Shown: positions 7,793-61,500 of the stretch, piece after piece
Position numbering within the stretch: position 1 is the first letter of the stretch
Layout: the number at the start of each line of letters is the position of its first letter
Source: Lachnospiraceae bacterium
Lineage (GTDB): Bacteria > Bacillota > Clostridia > Lachnospirales > Lachnospiraceae
Direction: 5' to 3'
Length of the DNA stretch: 64,000 nucleotides
NCBI GenBank assembly: GCA_910575255.1
Contig: CAJTEM010000025.1
Span: forward strand, 1-64,000
The notes under the pieces: model-generated
Seen by the model: only the letters and a program-made list of their open reading frames with translations
Database searches by the model: none
What the model was told of the DNA's origin: nothing
Translations under genes and position numbers: made by a program

Positions 7793-8304
7793 AATTTTCA
7801 AAAAGTGAACTGGACATCATCTATCAATATGCCGGACCGACCAAGGCGGAAACCCTTGCGGGCATGAAAGAAACCGTGCCGGTGATAAAGGACTTACTGA
7901 CAAAGGCAATCGTGGAGAACGCCATCCGAAAACTGGAAAAGATACCGGAGCCGGAGTGCAGCCAGTTTGTTGCCGCAACAAAAGCCCGGTTCCTGACAGA
8001 GCGTGACAATTCCATCCGCCAGCGGCTTGCGGCGGCAAAGGCACAGGAGCCGATTATGCAGGGACATGACCTGTCAGGAAAAGAACGGTTCCACCCGGAA
8101 ACCCGGCACATGATTACGCTGGAAGTACAGAAGCAGTGCTTTGTCGGTTTTAAGAGGGAGCGGTTCCGCTTCTTCCTCTCCGATGAAGGCTACCGGAACG
8201 CAAAATGCAGCGAGCAGGAGGGGGAAATCAAAATAAAGAGCCATGCCGCCGTTGTCGCCGGAAAGCTCTATCCTGACAAGAAGCCCCGACAGCAGGAACG
8301 ATAA
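7789..8304 (+). CDS. Conserved IME protein of unknown function
   Basis: This 171-residue soluble protein (MKFSKSELDIIYQYAGPTKA onward) has helical segments (VIKDLLTKAIVENAIRKLEK), a conserved CSQF patch and a basic tail (KLYPDKKPRQQER). I do not recognise a domain with confidence. It is the last gene of the rep-side operon, overlapping the DUF3847 gene by four bases, and is over 95 percent identical to its copy B counterpart (62095-62610). A role in replication or relaxosome function is inferred from context only. Confidence 0.75.
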   Translation: MKFSKSELDIIYQYAGPTKAETLAGMKETVPVIKDLLTKAIVENAIRKLEKIPEPECSQFVAATKARFLTERDNSIRQRLAAAKAQEPIMQGHDLSGKERFHPETRHMITLEVQKQCFVGFKRERFRFFLSDEGYRNAKCSEQEGEIKIKSHAAVVAGKLYPDKKPRQQER

Positions 8305-8530
8305 AAAAGCCTGTTCCAGAATCAAAGCGCGCCGGGCGCGTCTTGATTTTTGCGGGAAGTCTTAACGTGGACGAGCCGGGCGCGCTCACATTGGCGGCTT
8401 GCCATGTGTGGAAAAATCAGAACGAGCCGGGCGCGTTCTGATTTATGCCGCCTATGGCACAATCGGTACGGCTGATTCCTGACTTCTGGATATTCCGCTT
8501 GCAAATTTAGCTTCCAAAGTGACAAGTTGG
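8305..8530 (+). repeat. Three GC-rich hairpins sharing a CCGGGCGCG core
   Basis: Three successive inverted repeats contain GCGCGCCGGGCGCG or CGAGCCGGGCGCG: about 8321-8351 (flanked by AATCAA/TTGATT and TTTTT, terminator-like), about 8370-8392, and 8412-8444 (stem AAATCAGAACG/CGTTCTGATTT). The cluster is absent from copy B at the matching place, so it was inserted here or lost there. No gene is visible. Confidence 0.6.
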
Positions 8531-8549
8531 AAAATCCCCCTCTGAAAGA

Positions 8550-8833
8550 GGGCGCATTATCCGAGATAAAAACTTATCCGAGGTAAATTGATTAAATCCG
8601 ATGAATACAGCATTTGAAAACGATTATCTCGGATAATTAACCCCGCTTTCAATTGTGGGTGATTTGTACTTATCCGAGATAATTGGGTAAATCACACCTT
8701 TGCCTCTGATAATTTTTGAAATGGCAGTTGCTCTTTTCATAAATAATTATCCGAGGTAATTTCTTTGAAAGCCTTTCATATCGGCAGCTTTGAGAGTTAC
8801 TTCGGATAATTGGAAATCTCGGATAATGCGCCC
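8550..8833 (+). repeat. Mirror-symmetric iteron block with terminal inverted repeats, copy A
   Basis: The 284-bp block is bounded by GGGCGCATTATCCGAGAT and its exact complement. Inside are 13-bp iterons of TTATCCGAGATAA: forward at 8557, 8574, 8670 and 8747; reverse at 8624, 8797 and 8814; and a degenerate reverse copy at 8700. The positions mirror each other about 8691.5 to the base for three pairs and within one base for the fourth, although the spacers differ in sequence. Such arrays normally bind an initiator or relaxosome protein. The block is identical in copy B but inverted relative to the element backbone. Confidence 0.9.
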
Positions 8834-8864
8834 TATCCAAGAACTCGGATAGGGCGCAATTATA

Positions 8865-8895
8865 CACCACTTTGGGAAGTGGTGCATTGCGCCCT
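8865..8895 (+). other. Candidate oriT (MOBQ-type hairpin and nic site), copy A
   Basis: CACCACTT-TGGG-AAGTGGTG is followed by CATTGCGCCCT. MOBQ relaxases (RSF1010 MobA, Nes/TraA of staphylococcal and pIP501 plasmids) recognise an inverted repeat followed by TAAGTGCG/CCCT-like DNA, with the nick in TGCG/CCCT. The hairpin and nic motif are conserved in copy B with only a loop change. The cognate MobA/MobL gene lies 0.9 kb downstream. Related TGCGCCC motifs also end the iteron block. Confidence 0.6.
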
Positions 8896-9106
8896 GCCGG
8901 GAGCGCCCTGCGGACAGCAGATGATTTCCGTAGATTTTCAATCTGCTCCAATCATCACAGGGGAAGCTACCCTTCCCCTGCGCTGGCTTCGCCAACTACC
9001 CCTTTATGGGCTTGCCACCCGAAAATCTTTCAGAAAAGGTATTCCATTTAGCAAGTTAAAGCTGTATAATAGAGCCAGCGACAAATCGGAATTGACGGAG
9101 GGAAAC

Positions 9107-9637
9107 ATGATTACGCCTAAGTTAGAAACAGATAGATTGATTTTAAGAGAAATCCATTCAGACGATACAGAAGCGATTTTTAGCTGTTGGATGCAAGATG
9201 AAAATGTATCAAAGTATATGTGGTGGAAAGCAAGTGATGACATAAACGAAGCAAAAGGCTTTGTGAAATTTGAACTTGGAAATTTGGAAAATGACAAGTG
9301 GAATAGATGGATTATCGTTTTGAAAAGTACAAACGAAATAATAGGAACTTGTTTGATTTTTTTCAATGATGAAGAGGGACATTGGGATATTTCTTACAAT
9401 TTGGGAAAGAAGTTTTGGAGTAACGGATATGCGACCGAAGCTATGAGTGCAGTTATGAAGTACGCAGTTAAAGTGATGAAAATAAAAGAAATCAGTACAA
9501 CGTATGCGATAGAAAATTCGGCATCAGGTTATGTTCTTCAAAAATTAGGGTTTGAATTTATAAAGGAAGTACCCTATGAATGTAATGGTGGAGATATAGT
9601 TACAATGGGAAGATATTGTAGATATGAAGCGAGATAA
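9107..9637 (+). CDS. GNAT-family N-acetyltransferase (RimJ/RimL-like), IME cargo
   Basis: The 176-residue enzyme should transfer acetyl from acetyl-CoA to an amine. LETDRLILREIHSDD at the N-terminus, the beta-strand WRIIV-like region, GTCLIFF and the acetyl-CoA loop region NGYATEAMSAVMKYA (about 120-135) are typical of the RimJ/RimL branch. The substrate (protein N-terminus, antibiotic or other) cannot be read from sequence. It is AT-rich compared with flanking IME genes. A TATAAT at 9065 and GGAGGG before the ATG drive it, and a terminator follows. In copy B the same slot holds a different gene, marking it as swappable cargo. Confidence 0.88.
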   Translation: MITPKLETDRLILREIHSDDTEAIFSCWMQDENVSKYMWWKASDDINEAKGFVKFELGNLENDKWNRWIIVLKSTNEIIGTCLIFFNDEEGHWDISYNLGKKFWSNGYATEAMSAVMKYAVKVMKIKEISTTYAIENSASGYVLQKLGFEFIKEVPYECNGGDIVTMGRYCRYEAR

Positions 9638-9706
9638 ATTCCGGTTTGACGAACTGACAGTCTATCAAAAAACTGAATAATTCACCGTCCATCAGCGGCA
9701 CACCCA

Positions 9707-9742
9707 AGCAGGAAATCTGAAAAGGTATCCTGCTCTTTTTTT
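9707..9742 (+). terminator. Terminator after cargo slot, copy A
   Basis: AGCAGG...CCTGCT with a 16-base loop is followed by CTTTTTTT. The structure is conserved in copy B (60411-60447), so it belongs to the IME backbone and insulates mobA from cargo transcription. Confidence 0.7.
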
Positions 9743-9774
9743 GCCCGGAATCCGGGAGAAAGGAGGGCGCACAC

Positions 9775-11364
9775 TTGCCATGCCCACATTGTAAAATCAC
9801 CATCATCAAACGGAGTAATAACGAATCCGCTGTTTCTGCCGCCGCCTACCAGAGCGGCGAGAAGCTGTTCTCTGAATACGACCAGGAGCAGAAATACTAT
9901 CCCTACAAAAACGAAGTTACCCATAAGGAAATCATGCTCCCGCCCCATGCGCCGCCGGAGTTTGCAGACCGCAACACCCTATGGAACTCTGCCGAAGCGC
10001 AGGAAAAACAATGGAACTCCCAGCTTGCCCGGAGGTTCGTGCTTGCCATCCCAAGGGAAATCCCGCCGGGACAGTACGCCGACCTTATCCGTGACTACTG
10101 CCGGGAGTTTTTTGTTTCCAAGGGCATGATTGCCGACTTTGCCATCCACGACAAGGGGGACGGCAACCCACACGCCCATATCCTGCTCACCATGCGGGCG
10201 ATGGACGAAAAAGGGAAATGGCTCCCCAAGAGCCGCAAGGTATACGACCTTGACGGGAACGGCGAAAGAATCCGGCTCCCGTCCGGCAGATGGAAAAGCC
10301 ACAAGGAGAACACCGTGGACTGGAACGACCGGAAGTATGCCGAAATCTGGCGGCAGGGATGGGCGGACACAGCGAACCGCTATCTGGAAGCAAATGGCCG
10401 CCCGGAACGCCTTGACCTGCGCTCCTATGCCCGACAGGGGATTGATAAAATCCCCACCGTCCACATGGGGCCAGCCGCCTGCCAGATGGAGAAGAAAGGA
10501 ATCCAGACCAACATCGGCAACCTGAACCGGGACATCAAATCCGCCAACTCCCTCATGCAGTCCATCCGCCAGATGGTGCGCCAACTGAAAGGCTGGATTG
10601 CCGATTTAAAGGAGAAAAAGGCCGTGCTGCTGGAAGCGTTGGAGCAGGCCAGGGAGCCGACACTCCCGGAGCTGCTTTTTCAGTATCTGGAACAGCGGAG
10701 CGGGGAACGTGCCGGTTGGACTTCCAGAGGGAAACTGAAAGGTACGGTTGCCGACTACAATAAAGTGCAGGCGACTATGGACTTCCTGCGGAAGAAAGGA
10801 ATCACCACCGTGGAGAGCCTTGACGCCCGGCTGGATGAAATCAGCCAGAACGCCGTTTCCGTCATGGGGAGCATGAAAAAAAGTGAGAAGCGCATAAAGG
10901 CCATCAACACCATGCTGTCCTACATTGACAAATATGAAGCCAACAAGCCAGTCCATGCGGAGTATGCCGCCATCGGCTGGAAAAAGAAAAAGGAGAAGTT
11001 TGCGGAGAGCCACCGGGAGGAACTGGACGCTTACAATGCCGCCATCCGGTATTTTAAGGCAAACCTGAAAGGCAACTCCTACTCCCGCAAAGATTTGGAA
11101 TCCGAACGAGAACAGCTTGCCGACGCCCTGACCGGACAGAGGAAGGAGCTGGAAGCGGTTCAGGCAGACGTGAAGGTACTCCGTGACGTGCGCCACTGGC
11201 TCAACCAAGTGCTGCCATCCGAGCAGTACCGCCAGACCGCCGATCCGGGGAGGAAACCGTCCGTACAGGAGAGCCTGAAAGGGCGGCAGGAACGCATCCG
11301 GCAGGAGCAGGCGGGGAAACAGAAGCCGCCCCGGACACAGAAACAACAGAATATGGAACTTTAA
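9775..11364 (+). CDS. MobA/MobL relaxase (MOBQ)
   Basis: This 529-residue relaxase should nick one strand at oriT and pilot it into a recipient through the mating pore of a helper element. The N-terminal HUH nuclease domain (about 1-230) has YQSGEKLFSEYD, WNSAEAQEKQWNSQLARRFV and the metal-binding motif HDKGDGNPHAHILLT (His125, His133, His135). The C-terminal half is largely coiled coil with a basic tail. The frame starts at TTG behind AAAGGAGG; the nearby ATG is out of frame. Copy B encodes a near-identical protein, also from TTG. It heads a mob-primase-helicase-recombinase run on the + strand. Confidence 0.95.
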   Translation: MPCPHCKITIIKRSNNESAVSAAAYQSGEKLFSEYDQEQKYYPYKNEVTHKEIMLPPHAPPEFADRNTLWNSAEAQEKQWNSQLARRFVLAIPREIPPGQYADLIRDYCREFFVSKGMIADFAIHDKGDGNPHAHILLTMRAMDEKGKWLPKSRKVYDLDGNGERIRLPSGRWKSHKENTVDWNDRKYAEIWRQGWADTANRYLEANGRPERLDLRSYARQGIDKIPTVHMGPAACQMEKKGIQTNIGNLNRDIKSANSLMQSIRQMVRQLKGWIADLKEKKAVLLEALEQAREPTLPELLFQYLEQRSGERAGWTSRGKLKGTVADYNKVQATMDFLRKKGITTVESLDARLDEISQNAVSVMGSMKKSEKRIKAINTMLSYIDKYEANKPVHAEYAAIGWKKKKEKFAESHREELDAYNAAIRYFKANLKGNSYSRKDLESEREQLADALTGQRKELEAVQADVKVLRDVRHWLNQVLPSEQYRQTADPGRKPSVQESLKGRQERIRQEQAGKQKPPRTQKQQNMEL

Positions 11365-11366
11365 AC

Positions 11367-11410
11367 AGGCACTTGTTTTGTGATTTGAAATCGCTGGCAG
11401 GTGCCTTTTT
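11367..11410 (+). terminator. Hairpin after mobA, copy A
   Basis: AGGCACTT and AGGTGCCT pair (one mismatch) around a 24-base loop, followed by TTTTT. The same structure follows mobA in copy B (about 58753-58793), so it may act as an attenuator before the primase gene. Confidence 0.55.
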
Positions 11411-11436
11411 ATTTGCAACAAGAGGGATTTACAGAC

Positions 11437-11467
11437 AACGTGAACGACATTGTGTCGCTCACGTTGG
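11437..11467 (+). repeat. Palindromic insert ahead of the primase gene, copy A only
   Basis: CAACGTGA-A-CGACA-TTG-TGTCG-C-TCACGTTG forms a long hairpin. Copy B passes directly from the T-run to ATTATCAGGAGGG, lacking about 55 bases around this palindrome. It therefore looks like a small REP-like insertion or a deletion in copy B. Confidence 0.6.
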
Positions 11468-11489
11468 GATTATCAGGAGGGAACGCCTA

Positions 11490-12137
11490 TTGAACGTATT
11501 TGAAGCCGTGAAGCAGTCCGTCACCACAAGGCAGGCTGCGGAGCGTTATGGAATGAAAGTAAACCGGAACGGGATGTGCGTCTGCCCGTTCCACAACGAT
11601 AAGAACCCAAGCATGAAGGTTGACCGCCGCTTTTACTGTTTCGGCTGCGGAGCCACCGGGGACGTGATTGACTTCGTTTCCCGGCTCCACGGTATCGGCA
11701 GTAAAGAAGCCGCCCTTATGCTGGCACAGGACTTCTCCATCCCCTACGAGGACGGGAGGAACGCTGGGAAGCAACCCATCCGGCCACGTCTGCGGCGGGA
11801 AACCGAGGAACAGAAATTCAAGCGGATGGAGCGGCACTGCTTCCGGGTGCTGTCCGACTATTACCATCTCCTGCGCCGCTGGAAGGAGGATTATGCCCCA
11901 CGACAGCCCGATGAAGCATGGAATCCCCGGTTTGTGGAAGCCCTGCAGAACATGAGCCGTCTGGAATACCTGATGGACGTGCTTCTCTCCGGGGACATCC
12001 GGGAGCGGGCAGCACTTATCACAGACTGCGGAAAGGAAGTGAGGAAGATTGAAAGACGAATGGCAGAGCTTGCCGCCCCAGATACGGCAGGAAATAGCGA
12101 ACATGGCAGACAGCGCCGAGCCGCCCCGGAGCGTTGA
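11490..12137 (+). CDS. CHC2 zinc-finger primase-like protein
   Basis: This 215-residue protein has a DnaG-type CHC2 zinc finger (about residues 28-55; CPFHNDKNPSMKV then CFGCGATGDVIDF), which in primases contacts template DNA, followed by a helical region. No TOPRIM catalytic core is visible, so it likely works with the overlapping VapE gene. The TTG at 11490 behind AGGAGGG, giving MNVFEAVKQSVTTRQAAERY, is the best start and is conserved in copy B. The N-terminal 60 residues closely resemble the N-terminus of the ICE primase at 42.4 kb. It overlaps VapE by 89 bases. Confidence 0.88.
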   Translation: MNVFEAVKQSVTTRQAAERYGMKVNRNGMCVCPFHNDKNPSMKVDRRFYCFGCGATGDVIDFVSRLHGIGSKEAALMLAQDFSIPYEDGRNAGKQPIRPRLRRETEEQKFKRMERHCFRVLSDYYHLLRRWKEDYAPRQPDEAWNPRFVEALQNMSRLEYLMDVLLSGDIRERAALITDCGKEVRKIERRMAELAAPDTAGNSEHGRQRRAAPER

Positions 12138-13446
12138 GGAAGTCAAGGCCATGCTGGAAACCACCGAGAAAGGCGGCTTCCGCAACAGCATGAGCAACTG
12201 CCTGACCGTGTTCCAGTGCGACCCGCTCCTTTCCGGGGCGGTTGCCTACAACCTGCTGACCGACCGCACCGATATTTTAAAGCCAATCGGCTACAAAAGA
12301 GCCGTCGGAAGCCCCATGACCGACACGGACATGAAATATATCCGGCTGTATCTGGAAAAGACCTATGGCCTGACAAGCGAAAAGAAGATACAGGACGCCG
12401 CCGACCTTGCCGCCAATGAGAACAGTTACCACCCTGTCCGGGATTATTTAAACAGCCTGACATGGGACGGAACCGGGCGGATACGTTCCTGCCTGCGGCA
12501 CTTTCTGGGAGCCGGTGAGGACGATTACACTTACCAATCCCTGCGCCTGTTCTTATTGGGAGCCATCCACCGGGCATTTTCCCCCGGCTGCAAGTTTGAA
12601 GTCATGCTCTGCCTTGTAGGAGGGCAGGGAGCCGGGAAGTCCACCTTCTTCCGCCTGCTGGCGGTCAAAGACGAGTGGTTCTCCGATGATTTACGGAAGC
12701 TGGACGATGATAACGTATACCGAAAGCTCCAAGGCCACTGGATAATCGAAATGTCGGAAATGATTGCCACCGCAAACGCCAAGAGCATAGAGGAAATCAA
12801 GTCCTTTTTGAGCCGCCAGAAGGAGGTCTACAAGATACCCTATGAAACCCACCCGGCAGACCGCCCAAGACAGTGCGTGTTCGGCGGCACGTCCAACGCC
12901 CTTGACTTCCTGCCCCTTGACCGCTCCGGCAACCGCCGCTTCATCCCCATACAGGTATGCCCGGAGCAGGCGGAAACACACATCTTAGAGGACGAAGCCG
13001 CTTCCAGAGCCTATATCAGCCAGGTATGGGCGGAAGCAATGGAGATTTACAGAAGCGGCAGATGGAAGCTGACGTTCAGCCCGGAAATGGTGCGCTACCT
13101 AAAGGAACACCAGCGGGACTTCATGCCGGAGGACACCAAGGCCGGGATGATTCAGGCTTTCCTTGACAGCTACCCCGGCGATACGGTCTGCTCCAAGCAG
13201 CTTTACAAAGAAGCCCTGAACCATGATTTTGACGAGCCGAAACAATGGGAAATCCGGGAAATCAACGAAATAATGAACCAGTGCGTCACCGGCTGGAATT
13301 ATTTCTCCAACCCCCGGATGTTCGCCGGGTACGGCAGACAGAAAGGATGGGAACGGGAGCAACCGGCAACGGACACTGGCAACGGGACAGAAAAAAACCC
13401 GGAGGGATTTACGCCAGTGCCGGAGCAGATGGAGCTTCCCTTCTGA
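12049..13446 (+). CDS. VapE-family replication helicase/ATPase
   Basis: This 465-residue virulence-associated-E-type protein belongs to a superfamily 3-like P-loop group that unwinds DNA with a primase in phages and islands. Visible are the N-terminal segment MTDTDMKYIRLYLEKTYGLT, the Walker A GGQGAGKST at about 190-198, a Walker B-like HWIIEMSEM, and the sensor region GTSNALDFLPLDRSGNRRF. The start is TTG (MKDEWQSLPPQ), also used in copy B. Its long overlap with the CHC2 gene suggests translational coupling and joint action in replicating the excised element. Confidence 0.9.
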   Translation: MKDEWQSLPPQIRQEIANMADSAEPPRSVEEVKAMLETTEKGGFRNSMSNCLTVFQCDPLLSGAVAYNLLTDRTDILKPIGYKRAVGSPMTDTDMKYIRLYLEKTYGLTSEKKIQDAADLAANENSYHPVRDYLNSLTWDGTGRIRSCLRHFLGAGEDDYTYQSLRLFLLGAIHRAFSPGCKFEVMLCLVGGQGAGKSTFFRLLAVKDEWFSDDLRKLDDDNVYRKLQGHWIIEMSEMIATANAKSIEEIKSFLSRQKEVYKIPYETHPADRPRQCVFGGTSNALDFLPLDRSGNRRFIPIQVCPEQAETHILEDEAASRAYISQVWAEAMEIYRSGRWKLTFSPEMVRYLKEHQRDFMPEDTKAGMIQAFLDSYPGDTVCSKQLYKEALNHDFDEPKQWEIREINEIMNQCVTGWNYFSNPRMFAGYGRQKGWEREQPATDTGNGTEKNPEGFTPVPEQMELPF

Positions 13447-13699
13447 AAAAATCTGGTCAGGGACAGCCCGTTGCACACTTCGTTGCTATCCCGTTGCCGA
13501 GCCGGTTGCCGGGCAAAATCCCATAACTACGGGCTTTTCTCCCCCTTTAACAACCAAAGCAACAGAAAAATAAAAGAAAAAGTATAAAATAACCCAACCA
13601 CCAGACAAGGATTAGTTTCAAGGTTTTCCCGCGCCCGTTGCCGGACTTCGTTGCCGACCTTCCCTGTCTGGCCTTTTCATGTATGGAGGACAACTGCCT

Positions 13700-13897
13700 A
13701 TGGCGAAAAATAAAACAGAGATTCATGTCACCACAGTATTTGACGGCGAGCTGGACGCTACGGACGTTTTCGTGAGCCTTATCGCACAGAAGCACAGCAG
13801 AAAAATAGATAAAGAATATCTTGCTAAAACACAAGAAATAAGATATAATAAAGACGAGGTTCAAAGTGACCGTGTTCCGTCTGGATTGTGCGGGTAA
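13700..13897 (+). CDS. Small recombinase-linked protein of unknown function
   Basis: The 65-residue product (MAKNKTEIHVTTVFDGELDA, then DVFVSLIAQKH) has a beta-strand-rich first half and a charged second half. It ends 6 bases before the large serine recombinase in both IME copies (copy B: 56301-56498). Its position resembles small TnpW-like genes next to recombinases, and a recombination directionality role is possible but untested. The ATG is preceded by a GGAGG-containing stretch. Confidence 0.7.
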   Translation: MAKNKTEIHVTTVFDGELDATDVFVSLIAQKHSRKIDKEYLAKTQEIRYNKDEVQSDRVPSGLCG

Positions 13898-13903
13898 ACG
13901 GTT

Positions 13904-14371
13904 ATGATGAACACTTTTGAATATGCAGGGATGGACACACTCCTTGCCGGGAGCTTCCGGGCAGCTATCTATTGCAGGCTGTCCAAGGACGACGACCTTG
14001 ACGGGACGAGCGCCAGTATCGAGAACCAGCGGGATATGCTGGAAAAGTTCTGCGAGAAGCAGGGATGGGAGGTTACGGCAGTCTATCAGGACGATGGCTT
14101 CACCGGCCTGAACATGGAACGCCCCGACCTGAAACGGATGTTGAAAGCCATTGAGCGGAAACAGGTAAACCTTGTGATTACAAAGGATTTATCAAGGCTA
14201 GGGAGAAACTACTTGCAGACCGGGCAGCTTATCGAGGACTTCTTCCCAAGAAACGGCGTGCGCTACATCGCCATGAATGACGGGATAGACACCATGCGGG
14301 ACAACAACGACATTGCGCCCTTCAAAAATATCCTGAAGAACACGAGGCATTTGGGAGGGGTAAACTGCTAA
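13904..14371 (+). pseudogene. Large serine recombinase, truncated by ICE end
   Basis: The first 145 residues form the serine-recombinase catalytic domain (FRAAIYCRLSKDDDLDGTSA with the nucleophile Ser in YCRLS; KDLSRLGRNYLQTG; FFPRNGVRYIAMNDG). They are about 95 percent identical to the intact recombinase of copy B. Identity stops abruptly after FKNIL at base 14337 (ATATCCTGAA); the next ten codons derive from the adjacent ICE. The zinc-ribbon and coiled-coil DNA-binding domains are missing, so this copy should be inactive. Confidence 0.92.
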
Positions 14372-54629: not shown

Positions 54630-56294
54630 TCAGCCTGTGACCTGCTCCACTTCCGGTATGGGTTTGAGATTAAAATGAATTTCGATAGAAATGTGTCTTG
54701 TCTTATCGCTGCCTATGGTTTCATGGACAACGATTTCTTTAATCAGGCGGTTTAAGGTGGAAGCGTCCAGTTCGGTGATGTCCCGGTATTCCTGTATGGA
54801 TTCCACCCACTGCCTTGCGTCCACGGCAAGCCGGATTTCATCGGCAAGGTGCTTCCTGCCTTTCTCGACTTTTGCCTTTAATTCCGCCTGTTCCTTCTGC
54901 GTCTTTTCCAGCAGGAGATTGAAGTTTGCGTCTGTGATTCGTCCGGCAACCATGTCCTCATAGAGCCGCAGCACCATCTTTTCCAACACTTCAATCCGTT
55001 CCTCGTCTTTGGCAAGGGTGCGCTCCATCGCTTCCCTCTGGCCTTTCTGCTCGGCTTCGCAGGTGTCGGTCAGCCGCCCGGCCACCGCTTCACTGTCGGT
55101 CAGGGCAGCGGCGGCGCACTCCCGGATTTTATTCAGCACAAGGGCATAGAGCGTGTCATAATCAATCCGGTGCTGGGTGCAGTGCTGTTTCCCAAAGGCA
55201 TTGTAAGTCTTGCAGGAATAAATCCTCTGGGGGTGCTTGGCATTGGTGTAGCGGACAGTCAGGGACTTTCCGCACTCACCACATTTGAGAAGTCCGGCAA
55301 ACAGGCTCGGCTCCCCGGACTGCCCCGGCCGCTGGCGGGATTTCAGCTTCTCCTGCACGATGGCAAAACTCTTTTTGTCCACCAGCGGCTCATGCGTCCC
55401 TTCCACCACAATCCAGTCCTCCGGCTTCTTGTCCCGGATAGTGCCGATTTTAAAGCGGTACTCGGTCTTTTGGGAAGCGATTGCGCCGGTGTAGACGGGG
55501 TTCATCAGGATTTCCTTAATCACTGTAAAATCCCAGATGTACCGCCCATTCTCCGGGTCTTTCTTCTCCCATTTGGTGCGGATGTTCCTGTGCCCACGCT
55601 GCCGGTTCCACCATGTGGGGCAGGGGTGCTTTTCTTCCTCCAGCCTGCGCCGGATGTAGTTGGGGCCGTGCCCGTCCAGCGCATACCCGAAAATCAGCCG
55701 GACAACCGGGGCGGTTTCCTCGTCTACCAGCAGGCGGTTCCTGTCCTCCGGGTCTTTTTTGTAGCCGAAGGGGGCAAGGCAGCCGGTGAACTGGCCTTTC
55801 TGGGCTTTCAGCACATAGGAAGAATGGACTTTCTTGGAAATATCCTTGCTGTACATCTCATTCAGGATATTTTTGAAGGGCGCAATGTCGTTGTTGTCCC
55901 GCATGGTGTCGATACCGTCATTCATGGCGATATAGCGCACGCCGTTCCTTGGGAAGAAGTCCTCGATAAGCTGCCCGGTCTGCAAGTAGTTCCGCCCTAA
56001 CCTTGATAAATCTTTCGTAATGACAAGGTTTATCTGCTTCCGCTCAATGGCCTTCAACATCCGTTTCAGGTCGGGGCGTTCCATGTTCAAGCCGGTGAAG
56101 CCGTCGTCCTGATAGACTGCCGCAACCTCCCATCCCTGCTTTTCACAGAACTTTTCCAGCATATCCCGCTGGTTTGCGATGCTGGCACTCTCGCCCTGAA
56201 GGTCATCGTCTTTCGAGAGCCTGCAATAGATAGCTGCCCGGAATCCCCCGGCAAGCGCCGTGCCAATCACGTCATAATCTAATCCGTTCATCAT
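54630..56294 (-). CDS. Large serine recombinase targeting maff2
   Basis: This 554-residue integrase/excisionase has a resolvase domain (FRAAIYCRLSKDDDLQGESA; KDLSRLGRNYLQTG), a recombinase domain (APFGYKKDPEDRNRLLVDEE), a zinc ribbon (LKCGECGKSLTVRY and a later C-x4-C pair) and a coiled-coil C-terminus (EERIEVLEKMVLRLYEDMVA). Its gene ends beside attR, as usual for such integrases, so it is the likely enzyme for insertion at the ACAG core of maff2. It starts at ATGATG; the 65-residue small gene ends 6 bases upstream. Compared with copy A it is full length. Confidence 0.95.
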   Translation of the reverse strand: MMNGLDYDVIGTALAGGFRAAIYCRLSKDDDLQGESASIANQRDMLEKFCEKQGWEVAAVYQDDGFTGLNMERPDLKRMLKAIERKQINLVITKDLSRLGRNYLQTGQLIEDFFPRNGVRYIAMNDGIDTMRDNNDIAPFKNILNEMYSKDISKKVHSSYVLKAQKGQFTGCLAPFGYKKDPEDRNRLLVDEETAPVVRLIFGYALDGHGPNYIRRRLEEEKHPCPTWWNRQRGHRNIRTKWEKKDPENGRYIWDFTVIKEILMNPVYTGAIASQKTEYRFKIGTIRDKKPEDWIVVEGTHEPLVDKKSFAIVQEKLKSRQRPGQSGEPSLFAGLLKCGECGKSLTVRYTNAKHPQRIYSCKTYNAFGKQHCTQHRIDYDTLYALVLNKIRECAAAALTDSEAVAGRLTDTCEAEQKGQREAMERTLAKDEERIEVLEKMVLRLYEDMVAGRITDANFNLLLEKTQKEQAELKAKVEKGRKHLADEIRLAVDARQWVESIQEYRDITELDASTLNRLIKEIVVHETIGSDKTRHISIEIHFNLKPIPEVEQVTG

Positions 56295-56300
56295 AACCGT

Positions 56301-56498
56301 TTACCCACACAATCCAGACGGAACACGGTCACTTTGAACCTCGTCTTTATTATATCTCATTTCTTGCGTTTTAGCAAGATATTCTTTATCTGTTTTTCTG
56401 GTGTGTTTCTGTGCGATAAGGCTCACGAAAACGTCCGTAGCGTCCAGTTCGCCGTCAAATACTGTGGTGACATGAATCTCTGTTTTATTTTTCGCCAT
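56301..56498 (-). CDS. Small recombinase-linked protein, copy B
   Basis: The 65-residue homologue of the protein at 13700-13897 (MAKNKTEIHVTTVFDGELDA; three or four substitutions in the charged second half such as KHTRKTDKEY) keeps the same 6-base gap to the recombinase. Conservation in both copies supports it as a true gene; role unknown. Confidence 0.72.
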   Translation of the reverse strand: MAKNKTEIHVTTVFDGELDATDVFVSLIAQKHTRKTDKEYLAKTQEMRYNKDEVQSDRVPSGLCG

Positions 56499-56751
56499 AG
56501 GCAGTTGTCCTCCATACATGAAATAAGCCAGACAGGGGATAGCGGCAACGAAGTCCGGCAACGGGCTTCAAAAAACCTTGGAGCTAATCCTTGTCTGGCA
56601 GTTGGGTTATTTTATACTTTTTCTTTTATTTTTCTGTTGCTTTGGTTGTTAAAGGGGAGAAAAGCCCGCAGTTACGGGATTTTTCCCGGCAACCGGGTCG
56701 GCAACGGGATAGCAACGGAGTGTGCAACGGGCTGTCCCTGCCCGGATTTTT

Positions 56752-58161
56752 TCAGAATGGAAGCTCCATCTGTTCCGGCACCGGCGTAAATCCTTCCGGG
56801 ATTTTTTCCGTCCCGTTGCCGCTGTCCGTTGCCGGTTCTGTCCGTGCGTTTTCCCGTTCCCATCCTTTCTGCCTGCCGTACCCGGCAAACATCCGGGGGT
56901 TGGAGAAATAATTCCAGCCAGTGATGCACTGGTTCATTATCTCGTTGATTTCCCGTATCTCCCATTGTTTCGGCTCGTCAAAGTCATGGTTCAGGGCTTC
57001 TTTGTAAAGCTGTTTGGAGCAGACGGTATCGCCGGGGTAGCTGTCAAGGAAAGCCTGTATCATACCGGCCTTGGTGTCCTCCGGCATGAAGTCCCGCTGG
57101 TGTTCCTTTAAATGGCGCACCATTTCCGGGCTGAATGTCAGCTTCCACCTGCCGCTCCTGTAAATCTCCATCGCTTCCGCCCATACCTGATTCAGATAGG
57201 CTCTGGAAGCGGCTTCGTCCTCTAAAATGTGTGTTTCCGCCTGTTCCGGGCATACCTGTATAGGAATGAAGCGGCGGTTTCCTGAACGGTCAAGGGGCAG
57301 GAAGTCAAGGGCATTGGATGTCCCGCCGAACACGCACTGCCTTGGACGGTCTGCCGGGTGGGTTTCATAGGGTATCTTGTAGACTTCCTTCTGGCGGCTC
57401 AAAAATGACTTGATTTCCTCTATGCTCCTGGCGTTTGCGGTGGCAATCATCTCCGACATCTCGATTATCCAGTGGCCTTGGAGTTTGCGGTATACGTTGT
57501 CATCGTCCAGCTTCCGCAGGTCATCGGAGAACCACTCGTCTTTGACTGCCAGCAGGCGGAAGAAGGTGGACTTCCCGGCTCCCTGCCCGCCCACCAGACA
57601 GAGCATGACTTCAAACTTGCAGCCGGGGGAAAATGCCCGGTGGATGGCTCCCAACAAAAACAGGCGCAGGGATTGGAAAGTATACTCGTCCTCACCGGCT
57701 CCCAGAAAGTGACGCAGGCAGGAGCGTATCCGTTCGGTTCCGTCCCATGTCAGGCCGTTTAAATAATCCCGGACAGGGTGGTAGCTGTTCTCATCGGCGG
57801 CAAGGGCGGCGGCGTCCTGTATCTTTTTCTCGCTTGTCAGGCCATAGGTCTTTTCCAGATACAGCCGGATATATTTCATGTCCGTGTCGGTCATGGGGCT
57901 TCCGGCAGTTCTTTTGTAGCCGATTGGCTTTAAAATATCGGTGCGGTCGGTCAGCAGGTTGTAGGCAACCGCCCCGGAAAGGAGCGGGTCGCACTGGAAC
58001 ACGGTCAGGCAGTTGCTCATGCTGTTGCGGAAGCCGCCTTTTTCGGTGGTTTCCAGCATGGCCTTCACTTCCTCAACGCTCCGGGGCGGCTCTGCGCTGT
58101 CTGCCATGTTCGCTGTTTCCTGCCGTATCTGGGGCGGTAAATTCTGCCATCCGTCTTTCAA
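56752..58161 (-). CDS. VapE-family replication helicase/ATPase, copy B
   Basis: The 469-residue counterpart of the copy A protein has the same Walker A GGQGAGKST and GTSNALDFLPLDRSGNRRF. It carries a short extra segment near the C-terminus (EREN-ARTEPATDSG), where copy A has EREQPATDTG, so the tail is a slippage-prone region. It starts at TTG and overlaps the CHC2 gene by 89 bases. Confidence 0.9.
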   Translation of the reverse strand: MKDGWQNLPPQIRQETANMADSAEPPRSVEEVKAMLETTEKGGFRNSMSNCLTVFQCDPLLSGAVAYNLLTDRTDILKPIGYKRTAGSPMTDTDMKYIRLYLEKTYGLTSEKKIQDAAALAADENSYHPVRDYLNGLTWDGTERIRSCLRHFLGAGEDEYTFQSLRLFLLGAIHRAFSPGCKFEVMLCLVGGQGAGKSTFFRLLAVKDEWFSDDLRKLDDDNVYRKLQGHWIIEMSEMIATANARSIEEIKSFLSRQKEVYKIPYETHPADRPRQCVFGGTSNALDFLPLDRSGNRRFIPIQVCPEQAETHILEDEAASRAYLNQVWAEAMEIYRSGRWKLTFSPEMVRHLKEHQRDFMPEDTKAGMIQAFLDSYPGDTVCSKQLYKEALNHDFDEPKQWEIREINEIMNQCITGWNYFSNPRMFAGYGRQKGWERENARTEPATDSGNGTEKIPEGFTPVPEQMELPF

Positions 58162-58720
58162 GGTTCCTCACTTCCTTTCCGTGTCCTGTGATAAGGGCTG
58201 CCCGCTCCTGAATGTCCCCGGAGAGAAGCACGTCCATCAGGTATTCCACCCGGCTCATGTTCTGCAGGGCTTCCACAAACCGGGGGTTCCACGCTTCATC
58301 CGGCTGGCGTGGGGCGTATTCCTCCTTCCAGCGGCGCAGGAGATGGTAATAGTCGGACAGCACCCGGAAGCAGTGCCGCTCCATGTGCCTGAATTTCTGT
58401 TCCTCCGTTTCTTTTCGCAAGCGTGGCCTTATGGGCTGCTTTTTGCCGTTCCTCCCATCCTCATAAGGGATAGAGAAGTCCTGTGCCAGCATAAGGGCGG
58501 CTTCTTTGCTGCTGATACCATGGAGCCGGGAAACAAAATCTATCACGTCCCCGGTGGCTCCGCAGCCGAAACAGTAAAAGCGGCGGTCAACCTTCATGCT
58601 TGGGTTCTTATCGTTGTGGAACGGGCAGACGCACATCCCGTTCCGGTTTACTTTGATTCCATAACGCTCCGCAGCCTGCCTTGTGGTGACGGACTGCTTC
58701 ACGGCTTCAAATACGTTCAA
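58073..58720 (-). CDS. CHC2 zinc-finger primase-like protein, copy B
   Basis: The 215-residue homologue of the copy A gene has CPFHNDKNPSMKV and CFGCGATGDVIDF intact, with substitutions clustered in the helical C-terminal half. It starts at TTG behind GGAGGG. The preceding leader is about 55 bases shorter than in copy A because the palindrome is absent. Confidence 0.88.
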   Translation of the reverse strand: MNVFEAVKQSVTTRQAAERYGIKVNRNGMCVCPFHNDKNPSMKVDRRFYCFGCGATGDVIDFVSRLHGISSKEAALMLAQDFSIPYEDGRNGKKQPIRPRLRKETEEQKFRHMERHCFRVLSDYYHLLRRWKEEYAPRQPDEAWNPRFVEALQNMSRVEYLMDVLLSGDIQERAALITGHGKEVRNLERRMAEFTAPDTAGNSEHGRQRRAAPER

Positions 58721-58788
58721 TAGGCGTTCCCTCCTGATAATGAAAAAGGCACCTGCCAGCGATTTCAAATCACAAAACAAGTGCCTGT

Positions 58789-60378
58789 TTAAAGTTCCAT
58801 ATTCTGTTGTTTCTGTGTCCGGGGCGGCTTCTGTTTCCCTGCCTGCTCCTGCCGGATGCGTTCCTGCCGCCCTTTCAGGCTCTCCTGTACGGATGGTTTC
58901 TTCCCCGGCTCGGCGGTCTGGCGGTACTGCTCGGATGGCAAAACCTGATTCAGCCAGTGGCGCACGTCACGCAGCACCTTCACATCTGCCTGAACCGCTT
59001 CCAGTTCCTTCTTTTGTCCGGGCAGGGCGGCGGCAAGCTGTTCCCGTTCCGCTTCCAAATCTTTGCGGGAGTAGGAATTGCCTTTCAGGTTGGCTTTCAA
59101 ATACCGGATGGCGGCATTATAAGCGTCCAGTTCCTCCCGGTGGCTCTCCGCAAACTTCTCCTTTTTCTTCTTCCAGCCGATGGCGGCATACTCCGCATGG
59201 ACTGGCTTGGCGGCTTCGTATTTGTCAATGTAGGAGAGCATGGTATTGATGGCTTTTATCCGCTTCTCGCTTTTTTTCATGCTCCCCATGACGGAAACAG
59301 CGGTCTGGCCGATTTCATCCAGCCGGGTGTCAAGGCTCTCCACGGTGGAGATTCCCTTTTTCCGCAGGAAGTCCATCGCCGCCTGCACTTTATTGTAATC
59401 GGCAACGGTTCCTTTCAGCTTCCCTCTGGAAGTCCAGTCGGCACGTTCCCCACTCCGCTGTTCCAGATACCGGAATAACAGTTCCGGGAGTGTCGGCTCC
59501 TTCGCCTGCTCCAATGCTTCCAGTAATACAGCCTTTTTCTCTTTTAAGTCAGACAGCCATCCCTTTAGGCTCCGTACCATCTGCCGGATGGACTGCATGA
59601 GCCGGTTGGCGGTTTTGATGTCCCGGTTCAGATTGCCGATGTTGGTCTGGATTCCTTTCTTCTCCATCTGGCAGGCGGCCGCTCCCATGTGGACGGTAGG
59701 GATTTGGTCAATCCCCTGTCGGGCATAGGAGCGCAGGTCAAGCCGTTCCGGGCGGTCATTGGCTTCCAGATAGCGGTTGGCCGTGTCCGCCCATCCCTGC
59801 CGCCAGATTTCGGCGTACTTCCGGTTGTTCCAGTCTACTGTGTTCTCCTTATGGCTTTTCCATCTGCCGGACGCAAGCCGGATGCGCTCCCCGTTCTTGT
59901 CAAGGTCGTACACTTTACGGCTCTTGGGGAGCCATTTGCCTTTTTCGTCCATCGCCCGCATGGTGAGCAGGATATGGGCGTGTGGGTTGCCGTCCCCCTT
60001 GTCATGGATGGCAAAGTCGGCAATCATGCCTTTGGAAACAAAAAACTCCCGGCAGTAGTCACGGATAAGGTCGGCGTACTGTCCCGGCGGGATTTCCCTT
60101 GGGATGGCAAGCACGAATCTCCGGGCAAGCTGGGAGTTCCATTGTTTTTCCTGCGCTTCGGCTGAGTTCCATAAAGTATTGCGGTCTGCAAACTCCGGCG
60201 GCACATGGGGCGGGAGCATGATTTCTTTGTGGGTGACTTCGTTCTTGTAGGGATAGTATTTCTGTTCCTGGTCATATTCAGAGAACAGCTTCTCGCCGCT
60301 CTGGTAGGCGGCGGCAGAAACAGCGGATTCATTGTTGCTCCGCTTGATGATGGTGATTTTACAATGCGGGCATGGCAA
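58789..60378 (-). CDS. MobA/MobL relaxase (MOBQ), copy B
   Basis: This 529-residue relaxase is the same length as the copy A protein and about 95 percent identical, with HDKGDGNPHAHILLT conserved and changes mostly in the coiled-coil half. It uses a TTG start behind GGAGGACG. It presumably recognises the conserved hairpin at 61705-61735; because the two relaxases are so alike, either could act on both oriT copies. Confidence 0.95.
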   Translation of the reverse strand: MPCPHCKITIIKRSNNESAVSAAAYQSGEKLFSEYDQEQKYYPYKNEVTHKEIMLPPHVPPEFADRNTLWNSAEAQEKQWNSQLARRFVLAIPREIPPGQYADLIRDYCREFFVSKGMIADFAIHDKGDGNPHAHILLTMRAMDEKGKWLPKSRKVYDLDKNGERIRLASGRWKSHKENTVDWNNRKYAEIWRQGWADTANRYLEANDRPERLDLRSYARQGIDQIPTVHMGAAACQMEKKGIQTNIGNLNRDIKTANRLMQSIRQMVRSLKGWLSDLKEKKAVLLEALEQAKEPTLPELLFRYLEQRSGERADWTSRGKLKGTVADYNKVQAAMDFLRKKGISTVESLDTRLDEIGQTAVSVMGSMKKSEKRIKAINTMLSYIDKYEAAKPVHAEYAAIGWKKKKEKFAESHREELDAYNAAIRYLKANLKGNSYSRKDLEAEREQLAAALPGQKKELEAVQADVKVLRDVRHWLNQVLPSEQYRQTAEPGKKPSVQESLKGRQERIRQEQAGKQKPPRTQKQQNMEL

Positions 60379-60447: not shown

Positions 60448-60520
60448 GGGTGTGCCGTTGATGGGCGGCGGGTTATTTAATTTTTTAATAGTTTGTCAAT
60501 TCGACAAATTGAAATTGAAT

Positions 60521-61354
60521 TTATAATTTCCCTGCAAATATCTCTGCATCAATAGTGATTTCTTTTGTTTTTTTTAAATCTATTCCATCTTTATTTACAC
60601 AAAACAGTAGTGGAGTCATATCCGCAAAGGTTTTTATTTCCTCGGATGTCATTGTATACGTTGCTGAAACTTTCTTGTGATAAACAACGGAATACTTCTT
60701 TTGGAAATAATCTACGACAGCCGCATTAGAATATTGATTGCTTTTCAATTGTTCTTTTGCCGTCTCTCGAAGCTCCTTAAGATGAGCATTTCCCGGAATT
60801 ACCTTAATTACATAACCGCCTTCTTTCAAAACTCTGTTAAATTCGGAATAGTTAGCAGGAGTAAAAATATCTAATATGCAATCTATCCTTTTGTCTTTTA
60901 TGGGCATTTCTTCCAAATTTCCCACAAACCATTTGATAGAATTACTGAAATCACTTTTTGCTGCAAGCTGAACAGCATCTTTAGAAATATCAAATGCAAT
61001 AATTTCTTTATCACCTGATACTTCTTTTATCTGCTTTGAATAATATCCTTCACCGCAGCCAATATCAAGTATTGTATCAATGCTGCTAAAGCTTTTTATA
61101 AGCTGCACCACTTCATTCAGGATATGTGAATAATAGCCTTTTTCTAAAACCTCCCGCCTAATTTGAAAAGTCTCTCTGCTATAATGTTTTGAAGATTTTG
61201 TTCCTACAGCAAAGTTCACATAACCCGTTTTTGAAATATCGAAACAATGATGATTAGAACAAAATAAACTTTTTTGTTTCAATTTTAAATCTGTTTTACA
61301 TATAGGACATTGAAAAACTTTTTCACTGTCACTAAATCTAAGTATTTTATTCAT
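60521..61354 (-). CDS. RlmA-like 23S rRNA (guanine-N1) methyltransferase, IME cargo
   Basis: This 277-residue SAM-dependent methylase has an N-terminal zinc finger with Cys16, Cys19, Cys32 and His36, the same 3-13-4 spacing as in RlmA. SAM motif I is ILDIGCGEGYY (about 95-105), followed by AFDISKDAVQLAAK, and the catalytic-domain segment CILDIFTPANYSEFNRVLKE. RlmA-type enzymes methylate G745 or G748 in helix 35 of 23S rRNA; the G748 enzyme TlrB gives resistance to tylosin-type macrolides. Here the gene is AT-rich cargo behind an MTAHMRLR leader peptide, which points to macrolide-induced expression. Whether it targets G745 or G748, or gives resistance, cannot be told from sequence. Confidence 0.87.
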   Translation of the reverse strand: MNKILRFSDSEKVFQCPICKTDLKLKQKSLFCSNHHCFDISKTGYVNFAVGTKSSKHYSRETFQIRREVLEKGYYSHILNEVVQLIKSFSSIDTILDIGCGEGYYSKQIKEVSGDKEIIAFDISKDAVQLAAKSDFSNSIKWFVGNLEEMPIKDKRIDCILDIFTPANYSEFNRVLKEGGYVIKVIPGNAHLKELRETAKEQLKSNQYSNAAVVDYFQKKYSVVYHKKVSATYTMTSEEIKTFADMTPLLFCVNKDGIDLKKTKEITIDAEIFAGKL

Positions 61355-61500
61355 TATTCCCTCCGTTATTAAATTACTTGCCCAATAAGCGAGCTATGCA
61401 ATACGGATTCACCGCAACATAACCCGCGGTGTTATCTTAATCTCATATGCGCTGTCATATTCTCACCTCCAAACTCCGATTTGTCACCGGCTCCATTATA
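61355..61500 (-). promoter_or_regulatory. Attenuator leader of the rRNA methyltransferase
   Basis: On the - strand a TATAAT box (near 61500) is followed by a GGAGGTG ribosome site, the MRLR leader peptide, a hairpin CACCGC...GCGGTG directly after the leader stop (about 61413-61436), a second weaker stem, and GGAGG before the methylase ATG. This order matches drug-induced leader-peptide attenuators. No long T-run follows the hairpin, so translational control is as likely as transcriptional. Confidence 0.6.
61432..61458 (-). CDS. Macrolide-responsive-type leader peptide MTAHMRLR
   Basis: An eight-codon frame, M-T-A-H-M-R-L-R-stop, begins 7 bases after GGAGGTG. It is almost the same as the mef(E)/mel leader peptide MTASMRLR and the ErmD leader MTHSMRLR. 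In those, the M-R-L-R (+x+) motif makes erythromycin-bound ribosomes stall and switches on the resistance gene downstream. It lies 77 bases before the methyltransferase ATG. Confidence 0.78.
   Translation of the reverse strand: MTAHMRLR

What the first reader, a model, noticed from the sequence alone, without database searches (positions are those of the whole stretch)
60521..61500. Macrolide-type MRLR leader peptide in front of an RlmA-like rRNA methyltransferase on a mobilizable element
Seen: an 8-codon frame MTAHMRLR with its own GGAGGTG site, a hairpin after its stop, then a methyltransferase with the RlmA zinc-finger spacing. Known: MTASMRLR (mef/mel) and MTHSMRLR (ermD) leaders stall ribosomes carrying macrolides; TlrB, a G748 RlmA enzyme, gives tylosin resistance. 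Inference: this is an inducible macrolide-response cassette using helix-35 methylation rather than Erm or efflux. I am not aware of a mobile RlmA gene under MRLR control being a standard resistance determinant.
Basis: partly seen in the sequence, partly recalled or inferred. Interest (0 to 1): 0.82.

Follow-up and report, generated by a model that had tools for sequence, protein, structure and literature searches.

The report
Mobile tylosin-type rRNA methylase with drug-sensing leader
A small promoterless gene cassette that moves between related bacteria, often near other resistance genes, appears to switch on a ribosome-methylating enzyme when macrolides stall a tiny leader peptide; the principle is known from a soil bacterium, but the mobile form, and a hint about which drug it senses, look new.

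Summary
On the minus strand MTAHMRLR (61458..61432), with a GGAGGTG site, lies 77 nt before an intact RlmA-type methyltransferase gene (60521..61354).

The unit recurs: ten fetched loci have the same protein (two with one substitution each), and 64% (leader MTAYMRLR) and 45% (MVTFMRLR) relatives keep the same 15-nt MRLR-stop core and a near-identical attenuator. In the window's bacterial family 18 of the 19 genomes (of 378) with a clear RlmA homologue carry it so. It moves as a cassette of about 976 bp and lies within 4 kb of mef(A), lnu(C), aac(6')-Im, ant(6), ACI beta-lactamase or a Cfr/RlmN-like gene in some loci.

Best reading: a mobile, macrolide-inducible RlmA(II) resistance cassette under leader-peptide attenuation. 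It works like B. subtilis tlrB/yxjB (leader MIIQFIRYR, tylosin, G748), published with 180 predicted leaders, so this is a variant of a known kind.

New and testable: the residue two before the +X+ motif is H/Y/F in 7 of 7 plausible RlmA leaders but Ser/Ala in the tabulated mef/msr/erm leaders; there only Ser/Ala/Gly supports erythromycin stalling. This predicts sensing of macrolides without cladinose, such as tylosin.

Not shown: stalling, methylation site, phenotype. Folding did not settle the switch.

The parts
60521..61354 (-). RlmA-type 23S rRNA methyltransferase gene, 277 aa (P0001)
   Evidence: Zn_ribbon_RlmA 50.7/27 bits, E. coli RlmA structure 1p91 at E 1.4e-29, intact frame; placed with most Firmicutes homologues in the tree
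61432..61458 (-). leader ORF MTAHMRLR
   Evidence: leader present in 21 of 21 related loci with upstream DNA; ATGAGATTAAGATAA identical in groups A, B, C
61464..61470 (-). leader ribosome-binding site GGAGGTG
   Evidence: Read directly
61359..61364 (-). methyltransferase ribosome-binding site GGAGGG
   Evidence: Read directly; GGAGG invariant in the 5 rows of A, B, C
61389..61427 (-). conformation S1: long hairpin (61427-61418 with 61398-61389; inner 61415-61412 with 61406-61403); leaves the gene's ribosome site free
   Evidence: 14 of 14 pairs formed in 6 of 6 rows (3 groups), 3 pairs vary on one side, none on both; slid controls 31-54% paired
61362..61431 (-). conformation S2, exclusive with S1: 61431-61426 with 61415-61410, and 61407-61399 with 61371-61362, which covers part of the gene's ribosome site
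   Evidence: 98.9% of cells paired, slid controls 28-63%; outermost pair C-G in A, U-A in B and A-U in C by eye, one column off in the alignment; energy close to S1
60509..61484 (-). minimal mobile cassette: leader, attenuator, gene; only 26 nt upstream of the leader ATG, so no room for a promoter
   Evidence: The only stretch that L007 and L076 share with the window (99.8 and 99.9%)
54630..60378 (-). mobilizable element genes: serine recombinase 54630-56294, VapE-like 56752-58161, CHC2 zinc protein 58073-58780, MobA/MobL relaxase 58789-60378
   Evidence: Pfam; the same element around the cassette in L003, L004, L006, L009-L012, and in part in L008
8851..14337 (+). part of a sister element in the same window (about 91-93% identical to these elements), whose cargo slot (9030-9636) holds another frame instead of the cassette
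   Evidence: the frame (inside 8810-9637) had no NCBIfam hit at E 1e-15; its acetyltransferase likeness is by eye

Best explanation
A horizontally mobile, drug-inducible resistance cassette. Shown by sequence: a leader ORF with its own ribosome site, two mutually exclusive conserved RNA folds, and an intact RlmA-type methyltransferase, moving as one promoterless unit between elements and hosts, some copies lying in resistance clusters. Inferred mechanism: a macrolide in the exit tunnel stalls the ribosome on ...MRL|R; the stalled ribosome covers the 5' arm right after the leader stop, so fold S2 (which covers the gene's ribosome site) gives way to fold S1 (which frees it), and the methyltransferase is translated. 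It then methylates helix 35 of 23S rRNA, most likely N1 of G748, which weakens binding of tylosin-type macrolides. Because residue 4 is His (Tyr, Phe in relatives) rather than Ser/Ala, the leader is probably tuned to macrolides without a C3 cladinose, such as tylosin, rather than to erythromycin.
For: Leader present in 21 of 21 related loci with upstream DNA while the protein diverges to 64%, and again at 45%. Leader-attenuator DNA nearly identical among A, B, C. The attenuator model matches 19 of 397 genomes of the family, in 19 genera; of the 20 loci from both model searches 19 show an RlmA gene next and one ends inside its start. Of 378 family genomes 19 have an RlmA homologue at E up to 1e-30, and 18 of these are in the list of the attenuator model. 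Neighbours over curated cut-offs in some loci: Mef(A), Lnu(C), AAC(6')-Im, ANT(6), ACI beta-lactamase. The host assembly (96.7% complete) has no second RlmA, only a 26% match over residues 89-251, and its one 23S copy found has G745, U747, G748, A752 and A2058. The protein scores 177 bits against the G745 model's cut-off of 303 (E. coli RlmA 476) and sits with most Firmicutes homologues, apart from E. coli RlmA. Functional precedent: B. subtilis tlrB.
Against: Equilibrium folding does not settle the switch. The cost of opening the gene's ribosome site (kcal/mol; leader released, then RNA starting at P+14, P+17, P+20) is 1.3, 0.5, 1.1, 1.2 in A; 1.0, 0.9, 1.9, 4.3 in B; 3.5, 0.6, 3.0, 4.3 in C: a clear drop only in A and C and only for the shortest footprint. 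The released-minus-stalled difference at P+17 is reached by 124, 241 and 96 of 300 shuffles (A, B, C). In the released state the site is less covered than in most shuffles in A and B (277 and 296 of 300 shuffles at least as covered; C 129). The untranslated leader folds with the site open in A and B. Covariation rests on three groups: shuffles reach the S2 score in 40 of 500, and S1 gives no test (500 of 500). No sequence test here separates G745 from G748. The nearest leader peptides (MTASMRLR, MTHSMRLR) sense erythromycin, while RlmAII resistance is to tylosin, unless residue 4 changes the sensor. Two neighbours (mef-like 542/675, APH(2'')-IIa 590/625) are below their cut-offs, and no other resistance gene was recognised in the window's own element in the part read.
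Confidence: 0.7

Rival explanations
1. Same cassette, but the leader acts by transcription attenuation (as in mef(E), and in part in B. subtilis tlrB): the long hairpin is a terminator and stalling prevents it.
For: mef(E) and B. subtilis tlrB use terminators; the hairpin is strong and is followed by CUUAUU in A and C.
Against: No good U-tract; the terminator scan lists no minus-strand site between leader and gene; 77 nt lie between leader and gene, against a 327-bp 5' region in mef(E); S2 pairs part of the gene's ribosome site in all three groups.
Confidence: 0.2
2. The leader senses erythromycin-type macrolides like MefL/ErmDL, and the RlmA gene helps other macrolide genes (mef, msr, erm) rather than acting as a tylosin gene of its own.
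For: Same MRLR core as erythromycin-sensing leaders; mef-type genes lie upstream in L005, L007, L014, L016 and L019; a P. megaterium RlmA gene is followed by an msr-type gene.
Against: Residue 4 is H/Y/F, where all substitutions of ErmDL Ser4 except Ala/Gly reduced erythromycin stalling; the B. subtilis leader with Phe at the matching place does not respond to erythromycin; G748 methylation is described as specific to tylosin resistance.
Confidence: 0.25
3. An ordinary RlmA gene that was mobilised by chance; the leader is incidental and expression is constitutive.
For: 86 of 144 RlmA upstream stretches (repeats and a few truncated ones included) show no such leader; a 54% homologue in G624 lacks the attenuator.
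Against: In the window's family only 19 of 378 genomes have a clear RlmA, and 18 carry the leader-attenuator unit; leader and attenuator are better conserved than the gene; some copies lie in resistance clusters.
Confidence: 0.07
4. The enzyme methylates another site (G745 as in Gram-negatives, or another loop) and does not confer macrolide resistance.
For: Its best NCBIfam hit is the G745 model, though below the cut-off.
Against: The six other Firmicutes-type homologues scanned score alike (154-180) against that model; the tree puts it outside the E. coli clade; PMC6851288 states that Gram-positives carry the G748 type.
Confidence: 0.2

Closest known systems
Bacillus subtilis yxjB/tlrB (RlmAII) with leader MIIQFIRYR (PMC6851288; passages and section 10 seen)
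   Same: RlmA-type enzyme; leader ending in a +X+ motif; attenuation that includes covering of the gene's ribosome site; bulky residue two before the first Arg
   Different: B. subtilis gene with leader RYR, terminator and polymerase pausing; here a mobile promoterless cassette with an MRLR leader, no terminator found, some copies in resistance clusters. YxjB itself was not compared; Bacillaceae homologues on plasmids are 33-36% identical
mef(E)/mel leader MTASMRLR (PMC4335068, passages with Table 3 seen)
   Same: 8-codon MTA-x-MRLR leader before a mobile macrolide gene
   Different: Efflux genes, terminator-based, Ser at position 4; by eye no DNA likeness beyond the leader
ermD/ermK leader MTHSMRLR... 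(PMC8298421 and PMC4335068, passages)
   Same: MRLR stall motif, stalled with Leu in the P site and Arg in the A site
   Different: Controls an erm gene; Ser/Ala at position 4. A P. megaterium plasmid RlmA gene has this leader with Phe at position 4 (L099)
TlrB (Erm32), MyrA, ChrB models of NCBIfam
   Same: RlmA fold, annotated as G748 enzymes
   Different: 84, 62 and 90 bits against cut-offs of 550, 625 and 620
RlmA(II) listed as shared by Gram-positive and Gram-negative gut bacteria (PMC10782964, Table 4 in the passages seen)
   Same: An RlmA(II)-named gene moving among chicken and pig gut bacteria
   Different: Identity with our gene not checked; no leader or regulation in the passages seen

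Membership tests
RlmA methyltransferase family | N-terminal RlmA zinc ribbon with C-x2-C-x12-C-x3-H | tested here: met
   Pfam PF21302 50.7/27 bits; spacing equal to E. coli RlmA
RlmA methyltransferase family | class I SAM-dependent methyltransferase domain, overall homology to a proven RlmA | tested here: met
   PF13847 52.5/27 bits; 1p91 E 1.4e-29
RlmA(I), G745 (NCBIfam NF008300 equivalog) | score at or above 303 bits | tested here: not met
   177.2 bits; E. coli RlmA 476
RlmA(II)/TlrB, G748 | grouping with Gram-positive homologues rather than E. coli RlmA | tested here: met
   36-row group of Firmicutes homologues, SH-aLRT 99; two Firmicutes rows (L054, L100) fall outside it, L100 beside the E. 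coli group, and no proven G748 enzyme was among the rows
RlmA(II)/TlrB, G748 | N1-methylation of G748 | not testable with these tools
   Host target bases present; no enzymology
RlmA(II)/TlrB, G748 | curated TlrB/ChrB/MyrA model cut-offs | tested here: not met
   84, 90, 62 bits against 550, 620, 625; these are models of kind 'exception', so a miss says little
+X+ leader-peptide controlled macrolide resistance genes | short leader ORF with ribosome site and Arg/Lys-X-Arg/Lys motif upstream of the gene | tested here: met
+X+ leader-peptide controlled macrolide resistance genes | alternative RNA folds switched by the stalled ribosome | tested here: inconclusive
   Two exclusive conserved folds; accessibility calculation not robust
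+X+ leader-peptide controlled macrolide resistance genes | drug-dependent stalling and induction | not testable with these tools
   none
acquired resistance gene | near-identical copies in different genera, some near other resistance genes | tested here: met
acquired resistance gene | raises an MIC | not testable with these tools
   none

The most novel reading that the evidence does not exclude
One residue, two before the first Arg of the +X+ motif, is a natural specificity switch of macrolide-sensing leaders. Ser/Ala there (mef, msr, erm leaders) senses cladinose macrolides; His/Tyr/Phe there (7 of 7 plausible RlmA leaders found here, differing from MefL as S4H/S4Y and from ErmDL as S4F) spoils erythromycin sensing and tunes the leader to macrolides without cladinose such as tylosin, matching the drug that the RlmA enzyme defeats. 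This would answer which of the first six residues of MIIQFIRYR gives tylosin specificity, which its authors leave open.
Probability: 0.4. Interest if true: 0.75.

Novelty: new variant of a known kind. Interest (0 to 1): 0.62.

Why it matters
If right, clostridial bacteria share a mobile tylosin-type resistance cassette that the NCBIfam models used here do not call (every RlmA-type model scores below its cut-off), and that travels in part with mef, lnu and aminoglycoside genes. It also offers a natural set of near-identical leaders that differ at one residue and control genes against different macrolides, which makes the question of how a nascent peptide tells macrolides apart directly testable with unmodified natural sequences.

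Tried and rejected
Single-sequence hairpin significance: z -1.06, not informative. Ribosome-site accessibility with a ribosome mask: inconclusive, footprint-dependent, partly against the model. Sigma-70 scan: 5 sites against 4.2 expected, uninformative. Rfam: no hit at the locus, two group II intron hits elsewhere in the window. Leader DNA taken from a mef cassette: by eye nothing alike beyond the leader. Proven G748 enzymes (S. fradiae TlrB, S. pneumoniae RlmAII, B. subtilis YxjB) were not put in the tree, as no copy known by name was reached; NCBIfam scores were used instead. No look-ups in supplementary files were allowed, so whether MTAHMRLR is among the 180 leaders of PMC6851288 is unknown. 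Eight literature searches listed no paper on a mobile RlmA gene under an MRLR leader besides the two named; only listings, and passages of a few papers, were looked at, and the library holds open-licence papers only. PMC8133835 and PMC8116656 (passages) and PMC9178857 (outline and abstract: 16-membered macrolides induce ermB by a mechanism other than erythromycin's) added nothing decisive. Looser scans for +X+ frames list further short frames upstream of RlmA homologues (for example L032, L034, L037, L047, L074, L090, L091, L093), taken as chance by eye. Structure prediction was not run. Rows left out of the tree: L029, L030 and L048. A quick comparison of group C proteins was out of register by one residue and is not used.

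Full report
What is there. On the minus strand, reading 5' to 3': GGAGGTG (61470-61464), ATG ACA GCG CAT ATG AGA TTA AGA TAA (MTAHMRLR, 61458-61432), a 77-nt gap, and the gene at 61354-60521 with its own GGAGGG site. The product has the RlmA zinc ribbon (Pfam PF21302, 50.7 bits, cut-off 27) and a SAM-methyltransferase domain; the best match among solved structures is E. coli RlmA, 1p91, E 1.4e-29. Zinc-ligand spacing equals that of E. coli RlmA.

Is it more than chance. The pattern GGAGG, 3-10 nt, ATGAC, 7 nt, ATG-[RK]-L-[RK] was sought in 391 Clostridia genomes: 5 matched, 1 matched the reversed control. The five are this locus, three MTASMRLR leaders before a mef-type transporter frame, and one unrelated frame. 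In viral contigs 11 stretches matched: 7 MTASMRLR (a mef-type frame printed in 4), one copy of this cassette, and 3 unrelated.

Relatives. A scan of one genome per species listed 23 loci: 22 real relatives and one unrelated methyltransferase match (L025). Ten have the window's protein, eight of them exactly and two (L007, L010) with one substitution each; their records name several Lachnospiraceae genera and a Veillonellaceae bin. Twelve are 64-65% identical. All 21 loci that hold upstream DNA carry the leader, MTAHMRLR in the first group (A) and MTAYMRLR in the second (B); L021 begins 42 nt before the gene. Whole-genome searches gave a third group (C, 45% identical) with MVTFMRLR. ATGAGATTAAGATAA is identical in A, B and C and the stretch after it nearly so, whereas B and C proteins are 64 and 45% identical to A.

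How specific the link is. A covariance model of the leader-attenuator (R1) matches 19 of 397 genomes of the window's family, in 19 genera, and 2 of 398 in the phylum draw, the window's own included in both. Of the 20 loci of both searches 19 show an RlmA gene behind the leader and L111 ends inside what reads as its start. The reverse search found RlmA homologues (E up to 1e-30) in 19 of 378 family genomes; 18 of these are also in the model's list. The nineteenth, G624 (54%), has an MRLR-coding stretch overlapping the gene's start and no attenuator. So in this family RlmA looks like an acquired gene, nearly always under this leader. The window's own assembly shows no second RlmA.

Mobility. In 7 of the 10 group A loci (and in part in L008) the cassette lies in one element type with a serine recombinase, VapE-like and CHC2 proteins and a MobA/MobL relaxase, the aligned stretches being 95-99.9% identical. 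In L007 and L076 only window 60509-61484 is shared. Group B cores run from about 20 nt before the leader ATG to about 20 nt after the gene's stop between unlike contexts (L014, L024, the L015 type); in L019 the break upstream is an inserted pair of frames that look like mobile-element genes, also present downstream at 99.95% identity. The unit therefore starts just before the leader's ribosome site and brings no promoter. A sister element at 5.4-14.4 kb of the same window carries another frame, acetyltransferase-like by eye, in the same slot.

Company. Neighbours over NCBIfam cut-offs: Mef(A) 888/675 and Lnu(C) 343/300 in L014; AAC(6')-Im 371/350 in L005; ANT(6) 450/420 just upstream in L024; ACI beta-lactamase 675/640 downstream in L007. 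Below cut-off: a mef-like transporter (542/675), APH(2'')-IIa (590/625) and a Cfr/RlmN-like radical-SAM methyltransferase (RlmN model 261/290). Two of the ten proteins had no hit. The ten were picked by eye from the frames and one window frame, so this is a list of cases, not a rate; in the window's own element no other resistance gene was recognised in the part read.

RNA. Two exclusive folds are kept. S1 pairs GCGGGUUAUG with CAUAGCUCGC: 14 of 14 pairs in 6 of 6 rows, 3 pairs varying on one side. S2 pairs CACCGC with GCGGUG, whose outer pair is C-G in A, U-A in B and A-U in C (the last by eye), and UCCGUAUUG with UAAUAACGGA over part of the gene's ribosome site: 98.9% of cells. Best energies with each fold, counted from the leader stop, are close: S1 -22.8, -25.5, -24.4 and S2 -24.0, -24.1, -27.6 kcal/mol for A, B, C. 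A ribosome stalled with Leu7 in the P site would cover CACCGC and so disfavour S2. But the calculated opening of the ribosome site drops clearly only in A and C and only for the shortest footprint tried, rises in B at P+17 and in B and C at P+20, is no better than shuffles, and in A and B the released RNA covers the site less than most shuffles do; the untranslated leaders of A and B fold with the site open. Translational attenuation is the best guess, not a result.

Target and enzyme type. The host 23S rRNA aligned to E. coli has G745, U746, U747, G748, A752 and A2058. In the tree (49 rows, quick method) the protein falls in a 36-row group of Firmicutes homologues (SH-aLRT 99) apart from E. 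coli RlmA; two Firmicutes rows, L054 and L100, fall outside it. It scores 177 bits where the G745 equivalog needs 303; six other Firmicutes-type homologues score 154-180, Pseudomonas 239 and E. coli 476. That fits RlmA(II)/G748 by kinship, as PMC6851288 states for Gram-positives (passages), but no proven G748 enzyme was in the tree and nothing here measures methylation.

Precedent. PMC6851288 (passages and section 10) shows that B. subtilis yxjB is RlmAII, methylates G748, gives tylosin resistance, and is induced by tylosin but not erythromycin through the leader MIIQFIRYR; its authors aligned 180 predicted leaders before tlrB homologues. The principle is therefore published. PMC10782964 lists RlmA(II) among genes shared by Gram-positive and Gram-negative gut bacteria, in one table with lnuC and tet genes (passages).

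The residue -2 idea. PMC8298421 (passages): for ErmDL with erythromycin all substitutions of Ser4 reduced stalling except Ala or Gly, Ser4 sitting in a cleft between cladinose and desosamine; with telithromycin (no cladinose) Arg-Leu-Arg dominates. In Table 3 of PMC4335068 the ten listed leaders of mef, msr and erm, six of them distinct, have Ser or Ala there. Among 144 RlmA upstream stretches (repeats of one place included) seven plausible leader types appear: MTAHMRLR, MTAYMRLR, MVTFMRLR, MGISFRRLR, MIIQFIRYR, MTHFMRLRFPTLNQ, MQWNGVYFYVRKR. Two more hits (MRRRTNE, MRKYRE) look like chance and were set aside by eye, 86 stretches have none, and the reverse strand gives 5 control hits in 123 distinct stretches. 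The residue two before the +X+ motif is, in the order given, H, Y, F, F, F, F, Y. Seven of seven against none of six gives 6e-4 by exact count, but the leaders are not independent, A to C are kin, and the pattern was noticed on six of them; the seventh had been printed and was counted later. The P. megaterium plasmid leader (L099) matches the ermDL codons printed over the first eight codons except codon 4 (TCA to TTT; compared by eye), and precedes an RlmA gene followed by an msr-type gene. That tylosin has no C3 cladinose is recalled; PMC10314930 (passages) contrasts the tested macrolides by that sugar and notes tylosin's C5 disaccharide, which reaches the peptidyl transferase centre, so tylosin may act differently from telithromycin. 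That tylosin stalls ribosomes on MRLR leaders is not shown.

Verdict. Real, conserved, mobile, and probably a macrolide-inducible RlmA(II) resistance cassette; a new variant of the tlrB kind. The most valuable lead is the residue -2 switch, testable with natural sequences alone.

Noticed in passing
window 5438-14337: Sister mobilizable element, backbone about 91-93% identical to the fetched copies, with another frame (acetyltransferase-like by eye) in the slot where the RlmA cassette sits; suggests a cargo-exchange site upstream of mobA.
   Followed up: partly
L016 4659-5774; similar frames in L018, L019 and L076: A Cfr/RlmN-like radical-SAM methyltransferase (RlmN model 261 of 290 needed; CfrAB 172 of 530) lies between a mef-like transporter and the RlmA cassette; possibly another mobile rRNA methylase.
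   Followed up: partly
L099 (NZ_CP009919.1, P. megaterium plasmid pBMV_1): RlmA-type gene followed by an msr-type ABC-F gene, with an ErmD-type leader that has Phe instead of Ser at position 4.
   Followed up: yes
L026 and L027 (staphylococcal plasmids): Many small (about 3 kb) staphylococcal plasmids carry an RlmA homologue (about 36% identical); in the two read no +X+ leader was recognised. In pSA-01 it lies by erm(T), aadD and tet(L).
   Followed up: partly
L096 (NZ_CP047205.1, Corynebacterium faecale plasmid): An actinobacterial-type RlmA homologue lies between an IS6-like transposase region and tet(Z).
   Followed up: no
L122 (G624:C5): A 54% identical homologue has an MRLR-coding stretch overlapping the gene's start codon and no attenuator, beside what looks like an ABC-F gene; perhaps a deletion form.
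   Followed up: partly
L041 and L040: Clostridial RlmA homologues with possible leaders MGISFRRLR and MQWNGVYFYVRKR.
   Followed up: no
window 90-2798: A group II intron with a reverse-transcriptase-like frame (784-2688), followed by a frame (2819-3625) that looks like the end of a conjugation coupling-protein gene.
   Followed up: no
L007 and L076: The cassette followed by an ACI-type beta-lactamase in a Veillonellaceae bin, and the same downstream stretch in a contig filed as viral (IMG/VR), which may be a mobile element rather than a phage.
   Followed up: no
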